Virus record (IMG/VR): IMGVR_UViG_3300032282_003851
Coordinates: 1-26,797 of that record
Reading direction: 5' to 3' (one strand)
Source: a virus
DNA: 26,797 nt
Positions 2,294-15,354 of the stretch are shown piece after piece. Numbering within the stretch: position 1 is the stretch's first letter; the number at the start of each line of letters is the position of its first letter. The notes under the pieces were generated by a model. That model made no database searches. It worked only from the letters and a program-made list of their open reading frames with translations, and was not told the DNA's origin. Both the position numbers and the translations under genes were made by a program.

Positions 2294-2965
2294 ATGGAGA
2301 CAAAATACCCAAATCTAAACGAATTTTTTAAGCGTAACCATGCCGAGCGCAACTGGGCGACAAGCGAGACCGTCTCGGGCGTCGGATCGGAGCTCCGCTT
2401 TACCCGCGACCTACATAAAAACCTCGTCTCGTTTATAAACAAAAACAAAGTCTCCTCGTTGCTCGATCTCCCTTGCGGAGATCTTAATTACATTAAACAT
2501 GTAATCGCGGAGATAAAGCTCGAGCGTCCTTTTGGGTATGTCGGAGCGGATATTGCGACCAATCTTATCGCCGAGAATATTATCAACTTTCCCGAGCTGG
2601 AGTTTCGGGCGCTTAATGTCGTCTCCGATCCTCTCCTCGCTTGCGACATGATCCTCGTCCGCGATTGCCTTGTACACTTGCCGACCGATCTTGTATTAAA
2701 TGCGTTGAAAAATCTATCAAAAACAAAGACAAAATTTATCGCGGTTACTACTTTTCCCGAGCACCCGATAAACGTCGAGCTCTCCGCGCTGGGGAGCTGG
2801 AGGACTTTAAACCTTTGCGCCGAGCCCTTTAATTTGCCCGAGCCGCTCGATATAATCGTCGAAAATTGCGCCGAGTATGGAGGAGAGTATAAGGATAAGT
2901 CTCTCGGAGTATGGTCGCCCTCTCAAATAAGAGAAGCAATCTCCGCCGCCGCGTCGAGCCGCTGA
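2294..2965 (+). CDS. Class I SAM-dependent methyltransferase, glycan-cluster type
   Basis: A 223-residue Rossmann methyltransferase. The SAM-binding motif I is LLDLPCGD (56-63), the acidic end of beta-2 is in GADIATN (84-90), and a motif DCLVHLP follows beta-4 (124-130). The N-terminal phrase WATSETVSGVGSELRFT (21-37) and the later GSWRTLNLCAEPFNLPEPL are hallmarks of a family commonly found among glycosyltransferases, thought to methylate sugars. It lacks any DNA methyltransferase motif (no DPPY/NPPF or PC loop), so I would not call it a restriction-evasion enzyme. It follows TerL by 12 bases on the same strand and converges on the minus-strand GT4 gene, overlapping its 3' end by 43 bases. 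Confidence 0.85.
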   Translation: METKYPNLNEFFKRNHAERNWATSETVSGVGSELRFTRDLHKNLVSFINKNKVSSLLDLPCGDLNYIKHVIAEIKLERPFGYVGADIATNLIAENIINFPELEFRALNVVSDPLLACDMILVRDCLVHLPTDLVLNALKNLSKTKTKFIAVTTFPEHPINVELSALGSWRTLNLCAEPFNLPEPLDIIVENCAEYGGEYKDKSLGVWSPSQIREAISAAASSR

Positions 2966-3909
2966 ATCCAGTCCGTTAAATTGTAATTTTTTTCGATCTC
3001 CCGACGGATAATCGGAGCGATTAACTCGGCTTTCTTGCGATTGTAATACTTAAGAGCGTTAAAAATCTCGGCGTAACTTTCAAAGACGGACGACCCCTTT
3101 ACGATATGCGAGGGGATACCGTCTCGATTAAGGGCAAAGACGCGCAATCCGCTCGCTTGCGCCTCCAGTATCGCAAAAGACCCGCTCTCGCTGGGAGAGG
3201 GGACAAGGAGGCAATCGAAACGAGTATAAATATCCGCCGCGTCTTTTGGATCGACAAATCCCTTATAATAAAAGTTAAGAGTTTGAGAGGCGCGATTTAT
3301 AAACGCTTTGTAAAAATCGCTCTCGGGTACTCCTCGTCCGTAATAATGGAGCTCGTAATTATGGTCGGGATTAAGGGCGTTAAATTTATCGACCGCGTCA
3401 AAAAATGAGAGAGGGATCTTTTCGTCCGAGACGCGTCCGACGATACCGCAAATAAATTTACCTTGTCTCCGCTGGTTGCTCGGCTTGTATTTATTACAAT
3501 CGATACCGAGATTAATCGGGACGATAAGAATATCTCTCCAGCTTTGCGCCTTGCTTATCGGCTTATAATTTGAGATCGCGAGCTTTGGCTTTGGAAACTG
3601 GGAGACGTTAAACGCAAAGGAAAAAGCTCCATGTATAAACCAAACTCGGCGCGGGATCATGGAGAGCCAAATCTCCGAGCTCAAAAAAGGATCATGTATT
3701 ACGACAACCGAGTCGGGATATTGAGTTAATAAGATCCTCGAGAGCTCGTCCGTCGTTTTGTATGTTTTAAAATTCGAGTTTCCATAATTGAGACCGCCCT
3801 CGATGGCATAAAAAACGCTCTCAAAACGCGACCCCTTTACCCAGCAATCGACAAGACGCTCTCCTCCTCCGAAAAAAACTTTATGAGCGGTAATATGCAC
3901 GATCCTCAT
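2923..3909 (-). CDS. Glycosyltransferase family 4 (GT-B fold)
   Basis: A 328-residue retaining-type sugar transferase. The N-terminal Gly-rich loop FFGGGERLV (12-20) is the acceptor-side GT4 signature; the C-terminal half contains GIVGRVSDEK (155-164), followed by the donor-binding EX7E motif ESGSFAILE with Glu241 and Glu249. It probably transfers a sugar from a nucleotide sugar onto a surface glycan or onto a virion protein; the substrate cannot be read from sequence. It is the last gene of a three-gene minus-strand operon, its start overlapping the GT2 stop by 4 bases. Its stop lies inside the 3' end of the + strand methyltransferase gene. Codon and word use match the neighbouring phage genes, so it is not a recent import. 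Confidence 0.92.
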   Translation of the reverse strand: MRIVHITAHKVFFGGGERLVDCWVKGSRFESVFYAIEGGLNYGNSNFKTYKTTDELSRILLTQYPDSVVVIHDPFLSSEIWLSMIPRRVWFIHGAFSFAFNVSQFPKPKLAISNYKPISKAQSWRDILIVPINLGIDCNKYKPSNQRRQGKFICGIVGRVSDEKIPLSFFDAVDKFNALNPDHNYELHYYGRGVPESDFYKAFINRASQTLNFYYKGFVDPKDAADIYTRFDCLLVPSPSESGSFAILEAQASGLRVFALNRDGIPSHIVKGSSVFESYAEIFNALKYYNRKKAELIAPIIRREIEKNYNLTDWIQRLDAAAEIASLI

Positions 3910-4637
3910 AAGTACCTCGTATAAAGTTTTTGAGCTTGCTCGATCTTATGGTCGAGACCGTAACGGATTATCGTATTATTACCAGTATCTCGGCGATAAT
4001 AATAAATCGGATCGGATATCGGTACGACGCCGACGCCTCCGATTAACTCAAAGAGGCGATATATTAAAGCGACGTCCGTACAATTTACCAGCCAACAACC
4101 CGAAAAGATAAAGTCCTCCGCCGATAATAGCTTTACAAACTCCCAGCGACAAGATCTCGGAGCGGTCGCCCAAAAAGGGACGGAGGCAAAACGCCCCTCC
4201 TCAATTAATCCGCTGGGATATCGGACGAGCTGGTTAACCTCTCCAGTCTTAAGGTCGCTCCAGTTTCCATAAGTTAACCGAGCGCCTCCTTTATACGCCT
4301 CCGCAATAACGTCGAGGCAACTCGGAGAGATCATGTCGTCGAGGTCTATAAACAAAACGACGTCGGTATCGTTTCCCGAGTATCGTATCGCCTCGATCCC
4401 TCTCCAGCGAGAGAAAGCCGCGCCGTAATTTTGATCGTTATTTATGATCGATATCATATTTTTGAAAGGAGAGCTCTCGGCAAAGGATCGGAGCTTGCTC
4501 TCGGTCGTATCGGTCGAGCCGTCGTTTATTACATAGATAAAAACCTCATGATCCGCCGCCGCGCTGGTTATACTATTAAGGCAATCCGCCGCCCAGCTCT
4601 CGCAATTATAACCAGTAATGACGATTTTAAACCTCAT
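3906..4637 (-). CDS. Glycosyltransferase family 2 (GT-A fold)
   Basis: A 243-residue inverting-type sugar transferase. It begins with the usual first strand (IVITGYNCESW, 5-15), has the nucleotide-binding NDGSTD at 38-43, the QNYGAAFSRWRGIE helix, and the metal-binding DxD as LFIDLDD ending at 101. A conserved tail with PISDPIYYYRRDTGN resembles the acceptor region of bacterial surface-polysaccharide enzymes. No membrane helix is visible, so it is likely cytoplasmic. It overlaps both neighbours by 4 bases (ATGA), meaning the three genes are translationally coupled and probably act on one glycan. Confidence 0.93.
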   Translation of the reverse strand: MRFKIVITGYNCESWAADCLNSITSAAADHEVFIYVINDGSTDTTESKLRSFAESSPFKNMISIINNDQNYGAAFSRWRGIEAIRYSGNDTDVVLFIDLDDMISPSCLDVIAEAYKGGARLTYGNWSDLKTGEVNQLVRYPSGLIEEGRFASVPFWATAPRSCRWEFVKLLSAEDFIFSGCWLVNCTDVALIYRLFELIGGVGVVPISDPIYYYRRDTGNNTIIRYGLDHKIEQAQKLYTRYL

Positions 4638-5113
4638 ATTAAAACGATTGCGGTCTTATCCTCGTCCGTTAAGATCTCCGAGACGGGTTTGTTAAACTTT
4701 CGGCGTATTGTTAAGGCGAGCTCCAGCTCCGAGAGACGGTTTGTATCGTCGATAAGGATCGGGCAATCTAAAAAGAAACGATCCGCGTACTTAAGAAACC
4801 CCGAGCGCCCGATAATTGCGGGAGGAGCGTCGATAATAAGGAGATCGTATTTTTGCGGGAGGAGGTCGATAAATTGCGGCTCGTACCAGCCGTCGACGAT
4901 CGGAGCAAATATGTACTTTATATTCGAGTACTTTCCGACATACTCGGTATCATGCTCGACGCAAATAACTTTAAACCGCTTTGCAAGCTCATGAGATCCC
5001 GATCCGCTCCCCAGCTCGACGATTGTACTCCCCTCCGCGATATTCTCGACGATCCAGTTATAAACCGCCGCGCCGATCGCCCAGCCTCCGAGATTATTTT
5101 TGTCGTGCTCCAT
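4634..5113 (-). CDS. Small class I methyltransferase of the glycan operon
   Basis: A 159-residue Rossmann protein: motif I IVELGSGSGSHELAK (31-45), acidic SAM-ribose contact in ICVEHD (50-55), and the beta-4 motif DLLIIDAPP (90-98) followed by GRSGFL. These match compact methyltransferases that sit in surface-glycan clusters. It is the first gene of the minus-strand operon, coupled to the GT2 by an ATGA overlap. Upstream of its ATG is a hairpin followed by five Ts in the transcription direction (5121-5153), so expression may be attenuated. A different start downstream is unlikely because the N-terminal helix (NNLGGWAIGAAVYNW) looks part of the fold. Confidence 0.85.
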   Translation of the reverse strand: MEHDKNNLGGWAIGAAVYNWIVENIAEGSTIVELGSGSGSHELAKRFKVICVEHDTEYVGKYSNIKYIFAPIVDGWYEPQFIDLLPQKYDLLIIDAPPAIIGRSGFLKYADRFFLDCPILIDDTNRLSELELALTIRRKFNKPVSEILTDEDKTAIVLI

Positions 5114-5258: not shown

Positions 5259-7190
5259 ATGGTTACTCCCCTAATGCCTACTCACCCAAACGAGAGCCCG
5301 AGCTCTCCCAGTCTGTTAAACGATTGCGATAATTGTTTGCGCGTCGACGTTAACCAATGCGCGGAGATACTGGTATTTAATCTCGGGCTCAAAGAGGGGA
5401 CGGATTACGACTTTTCTTTTATCGATAATCATGGTAAAAAACATATCGTCCGAGCGACTGGACTTGCCGACGGGAGCGCGATAATTAATACCTCCGATTT
5501 ACCGCTCGGCTTTCTTATTGTTTACGCTGGAGTTAAGACCGTAACGATCCGCGAGGTCGGATCTTGCGACGATCTTTGCTTTAACTCTTGCGCTAATAAG
5601 GTCGAGTTTTTTTGTTGTATAATTTTAACCCCAGTCGATACGACTGGAGATATTGACGATCCTATCTCGGTCGAGATCCCTTGTTGCAAGGGAAAGGAGA
5701 GTCTCGTATTATTATCGCTTACTATAGTATGTAACGACCCGCTCGACGGAGGCGGAGTTGCAAGTTTATCGGGGACGGTAATTAACGGATCGGGGTCTTA
5801 TGAATTGCAAGTTAATTACGGCGGAGGCTGGGAGACGGTCGAGATATTTTCAAGCGTTACAAGCGGATCGATACTTAACGACTTTAATATCCCAAAAACC
5901 CCGCCCGAGCCCCTCTCGATACAAGTTAGGATTATCGATACGATAAGCGGATTAACCTCCAATGTTATTACGATAATCGTCCCGAGTTGTAATCCGATAA
6001 TCGAGGAAAGTATCGATTTTTTAAATGTATATTTTAAATGCAAGACGAATAAATACGCCGAGATTTCGGGGTCTTTTAATGTAGTCGACGGGTCGGGATC
6101 TTACGACTTTCAAATGTACGCGGGCGGAGTTTGGAATACGATCGCGACAAATATCCCCTCTCCGTTTACGACCCAAATTTTCGCGGGCGTCGACTCGGAG
6201 GGAGAGTTTCCCGCTCGAATAATCGACTCGGCTACTGGGGCAGTATCAAACGAGTTAATCGTATACGGCGAAAATTGCGGAGGATCTGTAAAAAGTATCT
6301 CGATATTAAGCGCCTCCTCCTCTTGCGAGGGAGAGCAGCAAGACGAGAGCGTACAAATCGAAATTAATTACGACGGGACGGGGCATACTTTCGAGCTCCA
6401 GTATTATGACGGCGCGAGCTGGATAACGATCGGGACGACGCTTGGAGTCGGGCAAACGCAATTTTATGTTATCGCTTATAACTCGGGCGTCCCCGCTGGA
6501 GGTTACTTAATAAGAGTTAACGATACGACGCAAGGTATTTACTCCGTCACGCAAAATTTAAACTTTGTCGATTGCGCTACCTCCGCAATTTTCCTCGACG
6601 GCGTACAACTGGGAGAGGAAAATAACCTCTCTCATATTTATTCGACCGATAACGTATACGAGTACTCGTATAGCTTATTCGACTTAGTGAGAGAGTACTC
6701 GACCGATAATGTATTTTTTGACACGATCGCAAACTCTCTCGGCTGGCTGGGTAGTAACCCCGACACCGCCTCGCACCAAAACACCGCGAGCAATATTCAT
6801 TACTCCGCTGGCAACTTTGTCCGTCTTGTCGGTAAAGATAGCGGAGGCGGACTTGTATACTCGAACTCTCTCCAAATCGTAACCTCCCCGAAAGTTTCAA
6901 AAGCCGATCCTTATTGTTTCGCAAATCAAAACGGAGTAACGATCGGAGGACTTGTCGACGCTGGTTACTTTCAAAATTATATTATCGAATATCGCCTCGC
7001 TGGGAGCGGAGATCCTTATACCGTTCTCGGAGTTTATAACGCAACGAGCGGGACTTTTGGAGACTTTAACGTACCGATCGGCGCGGGTAACGAGTTCGCA
7101 AATACCTCTCTCGACATAAGATTACGATCGGACGTTAACGCGTGGATCTTTTCCCCTGACTTTACCGTAACACTCTCGCCACCATGTTAA
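5259..7190 (+). CDS. Large repeat virion protein, probable appendage or adhesin
   Basis: A 643-residue protein built from about five beta-rich repeats of roughly 90-100 residues: near 151-244, 253-340, 346-439, possibly 440-545, and 545-643. Each carries a line such as GSGSYELQVNYGGGWETV (177-194), GSGSYDFQMYAGGVWNTI (278-295) or GTGHTFELQYYDGASWITI (373-391), and most end with a single Cys (VPSC, GENC, FVDC, SPPC). This looks like Ig-like or fibronectin-type domains used in phage tail fibres and host-binding appendages. The N-terminal 145 residues differ and hold eleven Cys including CDNC and FCC. There is no signal peptide. It opens the tail block under its own promoter and overlaps the next gene by 7 bases. 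Adhesin is inference from repeats and position. Confidence 0.65.
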   Translation: MVTPLMPTHPNESPSSPSLLNDCDNCLRVDVNQCAEILVFNLGLKEGTDYDFSFIDNHGKKHIVRATGLADGSAIINTSDLPLGFLIVYAGVKTVTIREVGSCDDLCFNSCANKVEFFCCIILTPVDTTGDIDDPISVEIPCCKGKESLVLLSLTIVCNDPLDGGGVASLSGTVINGSGSYELQVNYGGGWETVEIFSSVTSGSILNDFNIPKTPPEPLSIQVRIIDTISGLTSNVITIIVPSCNPIIEESIDFLNVYFKCKTNKYAEISGSFNVVDGSGSYDFQMYAGGVWNTIATNIPSPFTTQIFAGVDSEGEFPARIIDSATGAVSNELIVYGENCGGSVKSISILSASSSCEGEQQDESVQIEINYDGTGHTFELQYYDGASWITIGTTLGVGQTQFYVIAYNSGVPAGGYLIRVNDTTQGIYSVTQNLNFVDCATSAIFLDGVQLGEENNLSHIYSTDNVYEYSYSLFDLVREYSTDNVFFDTIANSLGWLGSNPDTASHQNTASNIHYSAGNFVRLVGKDSGGGLVYSNSLQIVTSPKVSKADPYCFANQNGVTIGGLVDAGYFQNYIIEYRLAGSGDPYTVLGVYNATSGTFGDFNVPIGAGNEFANTSLDIRLRSDVNAWIFSPDFTVTLSPPC

Positions 7191-7552
7191 ACGCTCTCGT
7201 AATAATTTCGGCGCTCTCGTTTTGTACGAGTATAATTTGCGTCGGTATACATAACTTAATCGGACGCGACGGCATGTTACTCGCAAAGCTGGGAGAGTAT
7301 CTTTTACTCGAGCTCCCGATTTGGATCTGTAAAGTTTTATTTGCTTGCTTGCCTTGTATGGCTTCATTTTGGGGGTCGCTCGTTTGGCTTGCGGTTATAT
7401 CGGTAATCCCAGTCGAGGGGTTGTCTTTGTTTTTTAATCTCGCGCTGGTAATCCCTTTCGTATTTATGGTCTCGGGGTTTAACACCCTCGCGGACGCTTT
7501 CTTTTTGTATTGCGACGTATATAAAAATGACGATCATGAGTTACATATCTAA
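7184..7552 (+). CDS. Small integral membrane protein
   Basis: A 122-residue protein with about four hydrophobic segments (near 3-22, 45-60, 62-78 and 83-100) and a short acidic tail (YKNDDHELHI). No enzyme motif is seen. It overlaps the repeat protein by 7 bases and the next small gene by 26, so it belongs to the tail operon. Membrane proteins sometimes occur before the tape measure in phages of this group; possible roles are DNA entry, exclusion of other phages, or a holin. The lysis candidates at 24305-24868 make a second holin here less likely. Function unknown. Confidence 0.7.
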   Translation: MLNALVIISALSFCTSIICVGIHNLIGRDGMLLAKLGEYLLLELPIWICKVLFACLPCMASFWGSLVWLAVISVIPVEGLSLFFNLALVIPFVFMVSGFNTLADAFFLYCDVYKNDDHELHI

Positions 7553-7736
7553 CCTCGAGGCGGCGGGCTGGTCTTATACTGGGGGTTGTCGTTGCGGCGG
7601 AGTATTAAAACATAAATATTCGAGGGGCAAAGATCGCCTCCTCGTTTATCCCGAGCGCGATCGGTTTGTATTGCGTAAATTTGGGGCGCAAAGTTTCGGA
7701 GGAGATCTAAATAAATTAATCGAGGTATGCAATTAA
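7527..7736 (+). CDS. Small protein with CxC motif
   Basis: A 69-residue protein with TGGCRCGGVLKHKY (18-31), a short basic middle and a C-terminal LNKLIEVCN. The CRC pair suggests a tight turn or metal site. I chose the ATG at 7527 because it follows an A-rich leader (TAAAAATG); the second ATG at 7536 would give a start three codons shorter with the same domain. It overlaps both neighbours. Small proteins with a similar Cys-Gly-Gly turn and a basic strand occur in many phages next to tail genes, but I do not know a function. Confidence 0.65.
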   Translation: MTIMSYISNLEAAGWSYTGGCRCGGVLKHKYSRGKDRLLVYPERDRFVLRKFGAQSFGGDLNKLIEVCN

Positions 7737-8311
7737 AAACGAGAATAAAGTCTATTTTAAACGGAGGGCGTAACGCCTTTCCCGACGCCAAACATAGAAT
7801 CGTCCCCGCCTTTACTTTTGAGGGCGTCGATTACTATAAGTTTGACGCCGCTCATGGAGACCTCCCTTACAAGAGAGCTCTCGCGGCGATCGTCGTTTAC
7901 AAAGAGCTCGAAATGTCTTGCTCGGTCGATTACCTCAAAAAGCACGTCGCAAAGGTTAACGAGATCCTCTCCGCGCCGAAATTTACCCTCGCGTCGGCAA
8001 TGACTTTACAAAAATTAAACACTTATCTCGAGGAGCGTTTAACTTTCCCTTTCGAGCCAAATCTCGGGCTTAAGCTGGGGACGGTTGTTTACTTTGACGA
8101 GAGCGAAAATCCGTACGATTATGATCCTAAATACGCGGAGGAAAAGATAAAACGCTGGAGGAGCGGGGCGGGCGTCCGCGATTTTTTTTTGAAAACGCCG
8201 TTAATGGAGTTAATACCCTTTTTAAAGAGTTACGAGGGAGATATCGAGATTTATACCCAAACGATCGACGCGATAAACGCGATACATTTGGGCGGAGTTT
8301 CGGGAGCGTAA
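7727..8311 (+). CDS. Tail assembly chaperone, unshifted form
   Basis: A 194-residue protein directly upstream of the tape measure, the usual place for the tail chaperone (lambda G position). Visible features: an N-terminal domain with FEGVDYYKFDAAHGDLPYKR (31-50), a helical middle and a C-terminal helical segment (LMELIPFLKSYEGDIEIY). It starts inside the last codons of the preceding gene. Its 3' end carries in-phase slippery heptamers, and the -1 frame continues open past its stop to 8526 without any start codon of its own, so a fraction of ribosomes probably makes a longer product. Such chaperone pairs coat the tape measure and recruit tube subunits. Similarity to a named family is not clear; position and frame logic carry the call. 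Confidence 0.7.
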   Translation: MQLKTRIKSILNGGRNAFPDAKHRIVPAFTFEGVDYYKFDAAHGDLPYKRALAAIVVYKELEMSCSVDYLKKHVAKVNEILSAPKFTLASAMTLQKLNTYLEERLTFPFEPNLGLKLGTVVYFDESENPYDYDPKYAEEKIKRWRSGAGVRDFFLKTPLMELIPFLKSYEGDIEIYTQTIDAINAIHLGGVSGA

Positions 8312-8526
8312 TAAATGAGACGAGCTGGAGCTTTGAGCGTCAAATTATCGACATAATACTCGAGGGAGACGCGGCAAGGTTACAAGAGCTCGACAACTGG
8401 ACGGCGATCGATTGTTTTGCTCGGCTTAATTATAGGCTGGGAATATTGAAAAAACAAAAAAAAGAAAGCGAGCAAAATGCCCGAGCAAATTATACTCGAG
8501 TTCGTCGGAGATCCGAGCGGACTTAA
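7727..8526 (+). CDS. Tail assembly chaperone, -1 frameshifted long form
   Basis: The interval 8312-8476 looks empty, but the -1 frame is open from 8131 to the stop at 8524-8526 and contains no ATG, GTG or TTG before a TTG at 8446. Its later part reads like a protein: NETSWSFERQIIDIILEGD, then LDNWTAIDCFARLNYRLGI and a Lys/Glu-rich end. A -1 shift at TTTGGGC (8287-8293) joins 189 residues of the upstream frame to 77 residues, giving 266. This reproduces the lambda G/GT arrangement immediately before a tape measure, whose start at 8477 lies inside the extension. A second candidate slip site is the run of nine Ts at 8182-8190; the upstream frame keeps good coding character after it, so the later site is preferred. 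Confidence 0.72.
8287..8293 (+). other. Programmed -1 ribosomal frameshift site
   Basis: TTTGGGC in the exact X XXY YYZ phase of the upstream gene (T|TTG|GGC), six codons before its stop. Shifting back one base here leads into the open extension frame ending at 8526. The competing site is the T run at 8182-8190, which is also in phase (T|TTT|TTT). Confidence 0.6.
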
Positions 8527-10732
8527 ACCCGTCGCCGACGCAATGTCGGCTCTCGGTAAATTAACAGACGACCAGCGCAAGAGCTTACAAAAAGCGACCG
8601 ACGATTTCAATACCCGCAAGACGGCAATCGTCGCAAGCGAGAAAGCAAGCGCGGACGCGATCGGTAAAACGACGACCGCGATAAGCAACGAGGCGGCGGA
8701 GCTTAATAAAGTATCGAAAGGGCTTAATGAGATATCGAAATCGGTTGCGGGCGGCAATCTCAAAGGAGTATCGGACACGTTTAAAAAAGCGGGCGACGCG
8801 ATCGGCGAGACGGTAACGAAAACGATCTCTCTCAAGACGCAACTCCGTACACTTAAGCAAGAGTTACAAGGGCTCGAGGTCGGATCGAAACGTTTTAAAG
8901 AGGCGTCGATCGAGGCGTCAAAGCTGGAGGATAAGATCGGCGACGTTAACGAGCAAATCCGCGTAATGAGTAAAGATACATTTGCTCTCGACGCGGTTGT
9001 CGACGGCGTTCGCGGTATTACGGCGGCTTATTCACTCGCGCAAGGAGCGGGCGCTTTATTTGGAGAGGAGAATAAAAATTTACAAGAGGCGCTCGTTAAG
9101 ATTAACGCCTTAATGCTCGTCTCGACCAGCTTGCAAGAGGTCTCAAATCAATTAACGGGACAAGGCGCGGCAAAGCTCGGGATTTTAAGTATTGCGACAA
9201 AAGTACAAACGTTTGTAATGGAGGGCGCGACGTTTGCGGCTAAAGCGTTTCGCGGAGCTTTGGTCGGTCTCGGTCTCGGCTTGGTCGTTACATTGCTTTA
9301 CGAGGCTGCAAAGGCTTTCGGATTGTTTACGGACTCCGTCGACGATAATACCAGCGCTCTCGATAAAAACGAGGAGGCTCGTAAAACGTTTCTCGAGCAA
9401 GACGAGGCGATTATTAATAAACTGGAGGAGCTTAAGGTCTCGGAGAAAGCAAGGCTCGAGGCGGCGTTAAAAAGCGCCGAGCAACTCCGCAAAATAAGAG
9501 CGGACGACGTTAACGGTTACGATACTTTACTGAAAAAGGCAAAAGAGAGCGGAGATAAAAATTATATTATTGAGGTTGAAAACTACATAAAAAAAGACGC
9601 GTTAAGGATTAAGGAGATAAACGACGAGGTAAAAGTACTCGACGAGCGGATCTCCGCAACAAAGGACGCTCTCGCGGCGATTGCAAAAGAGGAGGACGCC
9701 GCCCGTAAAAAGGAGGCGGAGGCTCGAAAAAAAGCCGACAAGCCGACCGAAATGCTCGCGCAAATCGAGGAGGGTTACAAACAAGAGCAAGCCGCTCTCC
9801 AGCGCAAGATCGACGCGGAGATCGCCGCCGAGAAAAAAGCCCTCGACGATAAAAAGAAATTAAAAGAGGACGCGGCGGACGCGGAGAAAGCAAACGAAAA
9901 GGAGTTAATGGATCATATCGCGACACTCCATAAGAAAAAGGACGACGAGATCGTTAAGAGCGAAAAGGACGCCGCCGCAAAAAAAGAGGAGCTCCGACAA
10001 GCCGAGATCCAAGCGGTCGGCATACTGGTCTCGACGATCTTTACAATAACCAACGCCCAGCGCAACGCCGATTATGAGGCGCAACTTAATCACTTGGCGA
10101 CCATGAGAGACGCCGAGCTAAATAACAAGGACTTAACGGAGGCTCAAAAGGCGGCGATTAATGAAAAGTATCGGAGAGAGGAGGCGGCGATTAAGCGCAA
10201 GCAGTTTGAGCAAGAGCGATCCGCAAAAATTATCGAGGCAACGATCGCGACCGCTCTTGCGGTTGTAAAGGCTTTACCTAATTACGTCGCGGCGGCTTTG
10301 GCTGGAGTTGCTGGGGCGGCTCAAATCGCGATTATCGCGTCGCAACCGACGCCCGCTTTCGCGAAAGGTACGGAGTACGTCGAGGGCGCTGGGACTGGGA
10401 CGAGCGACTCGATACATGCAAAGCTCTCGAAAGGCGAGCGCGTTGTCCCCGCAAAAATTAACGAGTCGCTCGCTGGCATACCAAACGAGGCGCTCCCGAG
10501 ACTTGCGGCGCTGGCTGGCATGATACCAAACATATCGGGAGATTATCTCGGAGGACTGGATCGTAACGCGTCCGCGAGTTTCGATTATAAGCTCATGGCA
10601 AAAGAGATATCCTCGACGCTTGCGAACGCGACAAAGCCGCAAATATCAATCGATAAAAACGGCTTTAATATCCTCCTCGTAAAAGGAAACTCGAGAGCGA
10701 CGTATCTTAATAATCGATACTTAAGCAAATGA
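8477..10732 (+). CDS. Tape measure protein
   Basis: A 751-residue protein with the classic tape measure layout: long helical and coiled-coil N-terminal half (LKTQLRTLKQELQGLEVGS), a hydrophobic segment near 262-282 (LVGLGLGLVVTLLYEAAKAF), a strongly charged Lys/Glu/Ala coiled coil from about 300 to 560, a second hydrophobic stretch near 588-621 (VAAALAGVAGAAQIAIIAS), and the familiar end FAKGTEYVEG followed by KLSKGERVVPAKIN. At about 1.5 angstrom per residue this predicts a tail of about 110 nm, pointing to a siphovirus. The start overlaps the frameshifted chaperone by 50 bases. In infection such proteins leave the tail and may help DNA cross the envelope. Confidence 0.93.
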   Translation: MPEQIILEFVGDPSGLKPVADAMSALGKLTDDQRKSLQKATDDFNTRKTAIVASEKASADAIGKTTTAISNEAAELNKVSKGLNEISKSVAGGNLKGVSDTFKKAGDAIGETVTKTISLKTQLRTLKQELQGLEVGSKRFKEASIEASKLEDKIGDVNEQIRVMSKDTFALDAVVDGVRGITAAYSLAQGAGALFGEENKNLQEALVKINALMLVSTSLQEVSNQLTGQGAAKLGILSIATKVQTFVMEGATFAAKAFRGALVGLGLGLVVTLLYEAAKAFGLFTDSVDDNTSALDKNEEARKTFLEQDEAIINKLEELKVSEKARLEAALKSAEQLRKIRADDVNGYDTLLKKAKESGDKNYIIEVENYIKKDALRIKEINDEVKVLDERISATKDALAAIAKEEDAARKKEAEARKKADKPTEMLAQIEEGYKQEQAALQRKIDAEIAAEKKALDDKKKLKEDAADAEKANEKELMDHIATLHKKKDDEIVKSEKDAAAKKEELRQAEIQAVGILVSTIFTITNAQRNADYEAQLNHLATMRDAELNNKDLTEAQKAAINEKYRREEAAIKRKQFEQERSAKIIEATIATALAVVKALPNYVAAALAGVAGAAQIAIIASQPTPAFAKGTEYVEGAGTGTSDSIHAKLSKGERVVPAKINESLAGIPNEALPRLAALAGMIPNISGDYLGGLDRNASASFDYKLMAKEISSTLANATKPQISIDKNGFNILLVKGNSRATYLNNRYLSK

Positions 10733-14274: not shown

Positions 14275-15354
14275 ATGGAAAAGCTATTAACAAAAAAGGA
14301 GCTCGCAAAGCTCAAAACCGCCGCAAACAACTCGATCTCTCTTGCTTTCGATATGGTCGAAAGCGTACTCGAGAGCGCCGTTAACGAGCTCCTCGCTCAT
14401 GAGATCGATAAGGTTGTCGGCATAATGCCGTCGGGAGATCAGATCCCAGTTACCCCAGCCGATAAAACGTCGGGGATAATATTACTCGCGCTCGGACATG
14501 CTTATTATGGCGAAATGGCTGCAAATCTCGCGGGCTCGATCCGTTACTCGGATAAAGATATCCCGATTCATTTGGTTTATCATGGCAACGCGCTCGATCA
14601 TTTGGGGCAAGATAAGCTCCGCCTTTTTACCAGTATCGCGCAAGCTCCAGCGGAGAGCTTTACAAAGGGCGGTAAAACGGCATACTTTAAAGCAAAGACC
14701 TATCTTTACGACTTAAGTCCGTACGATAAAACGCTTTACCTCGACGTCGACATGATCCTTTTCGGCAACCGTCGCGCCTCCGACTTTATCGCCGCGCTGG
14801 ACGGGGTCGACTTTGCGATCCAAAACCGCGACGCGATCGAGCTCTCCTCAATTAAAGAGGGCGACAAGCCTCCTTTTTATCTTTGGGCGGACGTTGCCTC
14901 AATTAAAAAGGCGTACGACTTAACCAGCGGCAAACTTTACGGCCTACACTCCGAGTTAATGTACTTTGAAAAAAATCCAAAAATGGAGGCTTTTTTTAAT
15001 GAGGTTAAAGAGATTTACGAGCGTCCTAAAATGGAGGCTCGCGAGTTCGCTGGAGATATCGCGGACGAGCTGGCTTTTGCGGTTGCAATGCTTAAGACGG
15101 GCGTTAAACCTCATGTCGAGCCGTACTCTCCCGTCTACTGGAGAAAGCTCGACGGTCGTAATGGAGTGCCGCACCGTATTAATGATCTCGGCGCGAAATT
15201 TTTTGCGTACTCCGTCGGCGGTAATGTGCAACCTCCGCAAATGGTCGACATTTATAACCTCATGGCAAAGGCTTACATGAGAGCCGTCGGCGTCTCCCGA
15301 GTTTGGGCGCTGAAAAACAAAAAGAACTTTATTAAAGAGCGTCAATCCTTATGA
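14275..15354 (+). CDS. GT8-like GT-A glycosyltransferase
   Basis: A 359-residue protein whose residues 66-330 fit a nucleotide-sugar transferase: a first strand GIILLALGHAYYGEMAANL (67-85), the donor-site AYFKAKTYLYDLSPYDKTLY (136-155) and the metal-binding LDVDMILF (156-163, DVD at 157-159), as in glycogenin/galactosyltransferase-type GT8 enzymes. The first 60 residues form an extra helical domain. It sits between tail-tip genes and the portal, overlapping the portal start by 4 bases, so it is co-expressed with virion parts. It may glycosylate a virion protein or host glycan. It is separate from the minus-strand glycan operon but uses the same codon style. The family is fairly sure; the substrate is unknown. 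Confidence 0.78.
   Translation: MEKLLTKKELAKLKTAANNSISLAFDMVESVLESAVNELLAHEIDKVVGIMPSGDQIPVTPADKTSGIILLALGHAYYGEMAANLAGSIRYSDKDIPIHLVYHGNALDHLGQDKLRLFTSIAQAPAESFTKGGKTAYFKAKTYLYDLSPYDKTLYLDVDMILFGNRRASDFIAALDGVDFAIQNRDAIELSSIKEGDKPPFYLWADVASIKKAYDLTSGKLYGLHSELMYFEKNPKMEAFFNEVKEIYERPKMEAREFAGDIADELAFAVAMLKTGVKPHVEPYSPVYWRKLDGRNGVPHRINDLGAKFFAYSVGGNVQPPQMVDIYNLMAKAYMRAVGVSRVWALKNKKNFIKERQSL

What the first reader, a model, noticed from the sequence alone, without database searches (positions are those of the whole stretch)
8131..8526. Hidden -1 frameshift extension of the tail chaperone fills an apparently empty gap
Between the stop at 8311 and the tape measure at 8477 no gene with a start codon exists, yet the -1 frame is open from 8131 to 8524 with protein-like sequence after 8311. 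TTTGGGC at 8287-8293 is in the right phase for slippage, and nine Ts at 8182-8190 give a second in-phase site. The context (directly before a tape measure) is the lambda G/GT setting. The extension has no start codon, so it can only be made by shifting. Choice of slip site is uncertain.
Basis: partly seen in the sequence, partly recalled or inferred. Interest (0 to 1): 0.72.

Follow-up and report, generated by a model that had tools for sequence, protein, structure and literature searches.

The report
Tail chaperone extended at nine Ts
In an unrecognised family of phages, probably of Bacteroidota, the helper protein that builds the tail appears to be made in a short and a long form by slipping one base at a run of nine Ts: a known kind of phage trick, but at an unusual site and with an unusually long stretch of DNA read in two frames at once.

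Summary
In detail: the -1 frame is open 8131-8523 (stop 8524-8526), has no usable start, and lies directly before the tape measure gene. In this window alone it is only mildly unlikely by chance; comparison settles it. In 31 distinct relatives (viral contigs plus one Bacteroidota MAG contig) the -1 frame stays open for 83 or more codons after a slip site (one is cut by its contig end) and encodes a homologous extension, while the zero frame also stays open for 40-80 codons. In close pairs synonymous change falls steeply in the overlap, so both readings are under selection.

TTTGGGC at 8287 is not shared; the conserved site is the nine-T run 8182-8190. Counting the window, 28 of 32 distinct members have T9, three have T8-C, and one has U_UUU_UUA about eight codons later.

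Best explanation: a lambda G/GT-like two-form tail assembly chaperone made by slippage on T9. Whether RNA polymerase or ribosome slips is unresolved; I lean slightly to the polymerase. The family has no PHROG, Pfam or fold match. A second Bacteroidota phage family (cultured members include B40-8) has a near-invariant A10 run where slippage would truncate instead of extend.

The parts
7727..8311 (+). Short form: tail-assembly-chaperone-like gene, 194 aa, zero frame
   Evidence: ORF; 31 distinct relatives, 22-39% identical; tape-measure-sized ORF next downstream
8182..8190 (+). Slip site: nine Ts (GAT TTT TTT TTG, contains in-phase T_TTT_TTT and T_TTT_TTG)
   Evidence: T9 in 28 of 32 distinct members, T8-C in 3, relocated T_TTT_TTA in 1
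8188..8526 (+). -1 frame extension, 112 residues plus stop (8188-8190 re-read after the shift); fusion 266 aa
   Evidence: Homologous extension in all relatives; unique part under purifying selection in close relatives
8189..8308 (+). Overlap read in both frames (40 zero-frame codons after the slip)
   Evidence: Zero frame open 40-80 codons past the run in every member; synonymous change strongly reduced in the overlap in close pairs
8287..8293 (+). TTTGGGC heptamer: in phase but rejected as the slip site
   Evidence: Not found at this place in any relative; conserved extension starts before it
8477..10732 (+). Tape measure gene, overlapping the end of the extension by 50 nt
   Evidence: PHROG tape measure match, E 2.6e-10

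Best explanation
The gene makes two proteins. Normal reading gives a 194-residue short form. A fraction of expression slips by one base at the nine-T run 8182-8190 and gives a 266-residue fusion whose last 112 residues come from the -1 frame. That the two frames are both used is shown by comparative evidence, not by protein data. From its place directly before the tape measure and its architecture the pair is inferred to act like lambda gpG and gpGT: the common part binds the tape measure and the -1 domain recruits the tail tube subunit. The slip is a homopolymer realignment: RNA polymerase adding one U at T9 (about 50%, my slight preference) or tandem -1 slippage of ribosomes on U_UUU_UUU (about 40-45%); both may contribute. 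The confidence given is for the two-form product made at the T run.
For: T run at the homologous place in 31 of 32 distinct members, 28 exactly T9. 34 of 41 plus-strand runs of 8 or more Ts in about 300 kb of relatives are at this site. Homologous extension in every relative with no shared start codon. Both frames constrained: e.g. L013/L020 zero-frame pS 0.73 upstream, 0.22 in overlap, unique -1 part dN/dS 0.13; L037/L038 0.93, 0.19, 0.10. Elsewhere in these genes FF is TTTTTT in only 6 of 29 cases. Tape-measure-sized ORF follows. For the polymerase: bacterial RNA polymerase slips efficiently in vivo at 9 As or Ts and its hybrid is 9-10 bp (PMC5009743); no conserved downstream structure or Shine-Dalgarno-like motif.
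Against: No protein or RNA evidence. Chaperone function rests on gene position; no PHROG, Pfam or fold match. Against the polymerase: three T8-C members and one with only U_UUU_UUA, and canonical heptamers in analogous genes of Porphyromonas phage005 and MT835630. T9 may partly reflect FFF in the -1 frame.
Confidence: 0.9

Rival explanations
1. Same two products at the same T run, but made by tandem -1 ribosomal frameshifting on U_UUU_UUU without a stimulator (rival only as to which machine slips).
For: T_TTT_TTT is in phase in all T9 and T8 members, including L025 and L032 where the run has another phase; T8-C members and the relocated U_UUU_UUA of L036 suit ribosomes better than polymerase. 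Analogous Porphyromonas-type genes use heptamers T_TTT_TTG and G_GGT_TTT. Ribosomal -1 shifting is the known route in lambda-type phages (PMC5009743).
Against: Seven Ts would suffice in the usual phase, yet nine are kept in 28 of 32; no conserved downstream structure or upstream motif.
Confidence: 0.43
2. Ribosomal -1 frameshifting at TTTGGGC 8287-8293, with only the last 77 residues as extension.
For: The heptamer is in phase and near the zero-frame stop, as in most known cases (PMC10885494).
Against: No relative has it there; conserved -1 sequence starts at the T run about 100 nt earlier.
Confidence: 0.03
3. The -1 frame is a separate gene with its own start, or an artefact of homopolymer sequencing error in one continuous gene.
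For: L002, L005, L012 and L036 have an ATG in the -1 frame 8-11 codons before the run, others a GTG or TTG. Homopolymers are error-prone.
Against: Those starts are not shared and the window has none. The zero frame stays open 40-80 codons past the run in every member and both frames are constrained, which one gene with a miscalled run would not give. The same run length recurs in many independent metagenomes.
Confidence: 0.03

Closest known systems
Lambda G/GT and the Xu-Hendrix-Duda class of tail assembly chaperone frameshifts
   Same: Gene directly before the tape measure; short form plus -1 extended form; homologous extension kept in relatives
   Different: Slip site is a T9 homopolymer lying 40-80 codons before the zero-frame stop (published mean slip-to-stop distance 26 nt in SEA-PHAGES and 36 nt in the Xu set, PMC10885494), so a long dual-coded overlap; no detectable sequence or fold relation
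Thermus thermophilus dnaX and Shigella spa13/mxiE transcriptional slippage
   Same: Homopolymer of about nine A/T used to make two products from one gene (PMC5009743); spa13 is likewise extended by slippage
   Different: Not phage tail genes; slippage by polymerase is shown there and only proposed here
phrog_8914 family (PDS1 gp_56, B40-8, Elizabethkingia TCUEAP2 annotated tail assembly chaperone)
   Same: Gene directly before the tape measure in phages of Bacteroidota, with a conserved homopolymer (A10) inside the gene
   Different: Long form is the normal reading and slippage would truncate it; homology to the T9 family only weakly hinted (C-terminal profile match, P 0.006, probability 6%)
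Porphyromonas phage005 chaperone-like gene (phrog_15994)
   Same: Gene before the tape measure with a -1 open extension that the record annotates as two tiny hypothetical proteins
   Different: Heptamer T_TTT_TTG, no long run; no detected sequence homology to the T9 family

Membership tests
Lambda G/GT-type tail assembly chaperone recoding | Gene directly upstream of the tape measure gene | tested here: met
   Window and most relatives with enough sequence
Lambda G/GT-type tail assembly chaperone recoding | Short form plus an extended form reached by a -1 shift, conserved in relatives | tested here: met
   Comparative only; the proteins themselves not observed
[quoted passage not shown]
   Shift 40-80 codons before the zero-frame stop
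Lambda G/GT-type tail assembly chaperone recoding | Sequence or fold relation to a known tail assembly chaperone | tested here: inconclusive
   No PHROG, Pfam, BFVD or PDB match; such proteins often lack similarity
Lambda G/GT-type tail assembly chaperone recoding | Binds tape measure and tube protein, absent from the virion | not testable with these tools
   Needs experiments
Canonical -1 ribosomal frameshifting | In-phase X_XXY_YYZ heptamer | tested here: met
   T_TTT_TTT in T9/T8 members, T_TTT_TTA in L036
Canonical -1 ribosomal frameshifting | Downstream structure or upstream Shine-Dalgarno-like stimulator | tested here: not met
   Mean z -0.46, 0.02, -0.32 for 40, 60, 80 nt; no shared motif. 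Pseudoknots not tested
Programmed transcriptional slippage | Run of nine or more A or T | tested here: inconclusive
   Met in 28 of 32 members; T8-C in three, T6-A in one
Programmed transcriptional slippage | mRNAs with extra or missing bases at the run | not testable with these tools
   Needs RNA sequencing

The most novel reading that the evidence does not exclude
Phages of Bacteroidota set the ratio of short to long tail chaperone by RNA polymerase slippage on homopolymers rather than by ribosomal frameshifting, in two opposite designs: T9 to extend a short gene (this family) and A10 to truncate a long one (phrog_8914 family, including cultured B. fragilis phages).
Probability: 0.42. Interest if true: 0.78.

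Novelty: new variant of a known kind. Interest (0 to 1): 0.6.

Why it matters
The G/GT shift is known to be widespread, but this chaperone family is invisible to PHROGs and Pfam and its second product cannot be found by any start-codon-based annotation. It is a clean case of a long overlap with both frames under selection, and it raises a testable alternative: that the two-form chaperone ratio can be set at transcription. The A10 family would make the question testable in cultured phages whose gene is now annotated as one ordinary protein.

Tried and rejected
TTTGGGC as slip site: rejected. Separate start for the extension: rejected. Conserved downstream hairpin: not found; a GCAGG/CCTGC stem in the L010-type subgroup is invariant, so no covariation evidence. 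Fold search: short form without significant hit in BFVD and PDB, extension without significant hit in BFVD. Homology of the T9 fusion to the A10 family: only 47 C-terminal columns aligned, weakly, so not claimed. Cultured phages with the T9 family: none by tblastn. Later profile searches added only L170 and L175. No paper found describing this in Bacteroidota phages (only open-licence papers are held).

Full report
Observation. The gene at 7727-8311 and the -1 open frame 8131-8523 (stop 8524-8526) are as described, with the tape measure at 8477-10732. In the window alone the open frame is not striking: 8.6% of synonymous recodings leave the 40 overlap codons open, and the 71 codons beyond the zero-frame stop are open in 2.3% of resampled sequences.

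Relatives. A protein search and profile rounds in viral contigs, plus one search of bacterial genomes, gave about 35 loci, later joined by L170 and L175. After removing duplicates, and leaving out L031, which ends before the site, there are 32 members counting the window; those aligned are 22-39% identical to it in the short form. L007 comes from a Bacteroidota MAG. No cultured phage in the collection carries the family.

Slip site. At one homologous place, after a conserved FF, 28 distinct members have exactly nine Ts, three (L009, L011, L012) have eight Ts then C, and one (L036) instead has T_TTT_TTA about eight codons further on. L025 and L032 carry the nine Ts in other phases but still contain an in-phase T_TTT_TTT. 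In about 300 kb of these loci, 34 of 41 plus-strand runs of eight or more Ts are at this site. Elsewhere in these genes FF is written TTTTTT in only 6 of 29 cases.

The extension. From the slip onwards the -1 frame encodes 83-112 residues in every member (L023 is cut by its contig end), homologous throughout. It has no shared start codon. In the window the homologous part begins about 100 nt before TTTGGGC, and no relative has that heptamer at that place. So the shift is at the T run, and the fusion is 154 zero-frame residues plus 112.

Both readings matter. The zero frame stays open 40-80 codons past the slip in every member. In pairs such as L013/L020 and L037/L038 the zero-frame synonymous difference drops from 0.73 and 0.93 upstream to 0.22 and 0.19 in the overlap, while the unique part of the extension has dN/dS near 0.1. 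Some pairs (L003/L005, L010/L027) are saturated or divergent and less clear.

Function. Tape-measure-sized ORFs follow the extension in most relatives. With the architecture this supports a G/GT-like tail assembly chaperone, by context; neither sequence nor fold comparison identified a known one. The short form is predicted as a beta hairpin followed by helices, the extension as helical. The lambda model (short form coats the tape measure, extension recruits tube subunits) is summarised in PMC5009743.

Who slips. There is no conserved downstream structure and no shared Shine-Dalgarno-like motif. Nine A or T is a length at which bacterial RNA polymerase slips efficiently in vivo, and its hybrid is 9-10 bp (PMC5009743). 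Against that, the T8-C and T6-A members and the heptamers in the analogous genes of Porphyromonas phage005 and MT835630 fit ribosomes better. I rate polymerase about 50%, ribosome 40-45%.

A second family. Following tape measure hits to cultured phages led to Parabacteroides phage PDS1 gp_56 and relatives (77 phage records; phrog_8914). Here the long form is one frame. Among 74 distinct viral-contig genes, 71 have A10 and 3 have A9 at a conserved KKK; all 222 lysine codons there are AAA against 48.7% elsewhere in the same genes. Both other frames stop within seven codons in 84%, against 17% of control positions, the design described for Thermus dnaX. Two cultured records with another run length have the gene split at the run: BF8P1 (A11) and P2559S (A8); either could be a homopolymer sequencing error. 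The B124-14 virion proteome named ORFs 38, 39 and 42 only (PMC3338817), consistent with a chaperone that leaves the particle. Homology between the two families is not established.

Limits. Counts cover related sequences and are not independent events. All functional statements are inferences from sequence.

Noticed in passing
L039 2570-3343 (PDS1 gp_56); L042-L047, L049-L130: A near-invariant A10 run (71 of 74 genes, A9 in 3) inside the single-frame gene before the tape measure, with only AAA lysine codons and stops close by in both other frames: a candidate programmed truncation in many Bacteroidota phages, cultured ones included.
   Followed up: partly
L041 1501-2266 (Croceibacter phage P2559S) and L042 1501-2254 (Bacteroides phage BF8P1): In these two records the A run is A8 and A11 and the same gene is annotated as two ORFs; real length change or homopolymer sequencing error.
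   Followed up: partly
L040 2768-3540 (Porphyromonas phage005a); L048: Chaperone-like gene with T_TTT_TTG (L048: G_GGT_TTT) and an unannotated -1 extension; the record shows two tiny hypothetical proteins there.
   Followed up: partly
window 7184-7552 and 7527-7736; L002 3246-3548 and 3554-3781; L006 3043-3369: A small hydrophobic-looking protein, and in window and L002 a small Cys/Gly-containing ORF, sit just upstream of the chaperone; PDS1 has a DUF1360-annotated gene in the same place. No Pfam match for the window gene.
   Followed up: no
L170 (IMGVR_UViG_2830710863_000002): The T9 member on a 51 kb contig whose name pattern suggests an isolate genome rather than a metagenome; it could give a culturable host for tests.
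   Followed up: no
window 2294-2965 (+), 2923-5113 (-), 14275-15354 (+): ORFs that by eye resemble methyltransferases and glycosyltransferases within the structural region, some on the opposite strand; similar-looking ORFs lie upstream of the chaperone in L170. Not checked against family libraries.
   Followed up: no
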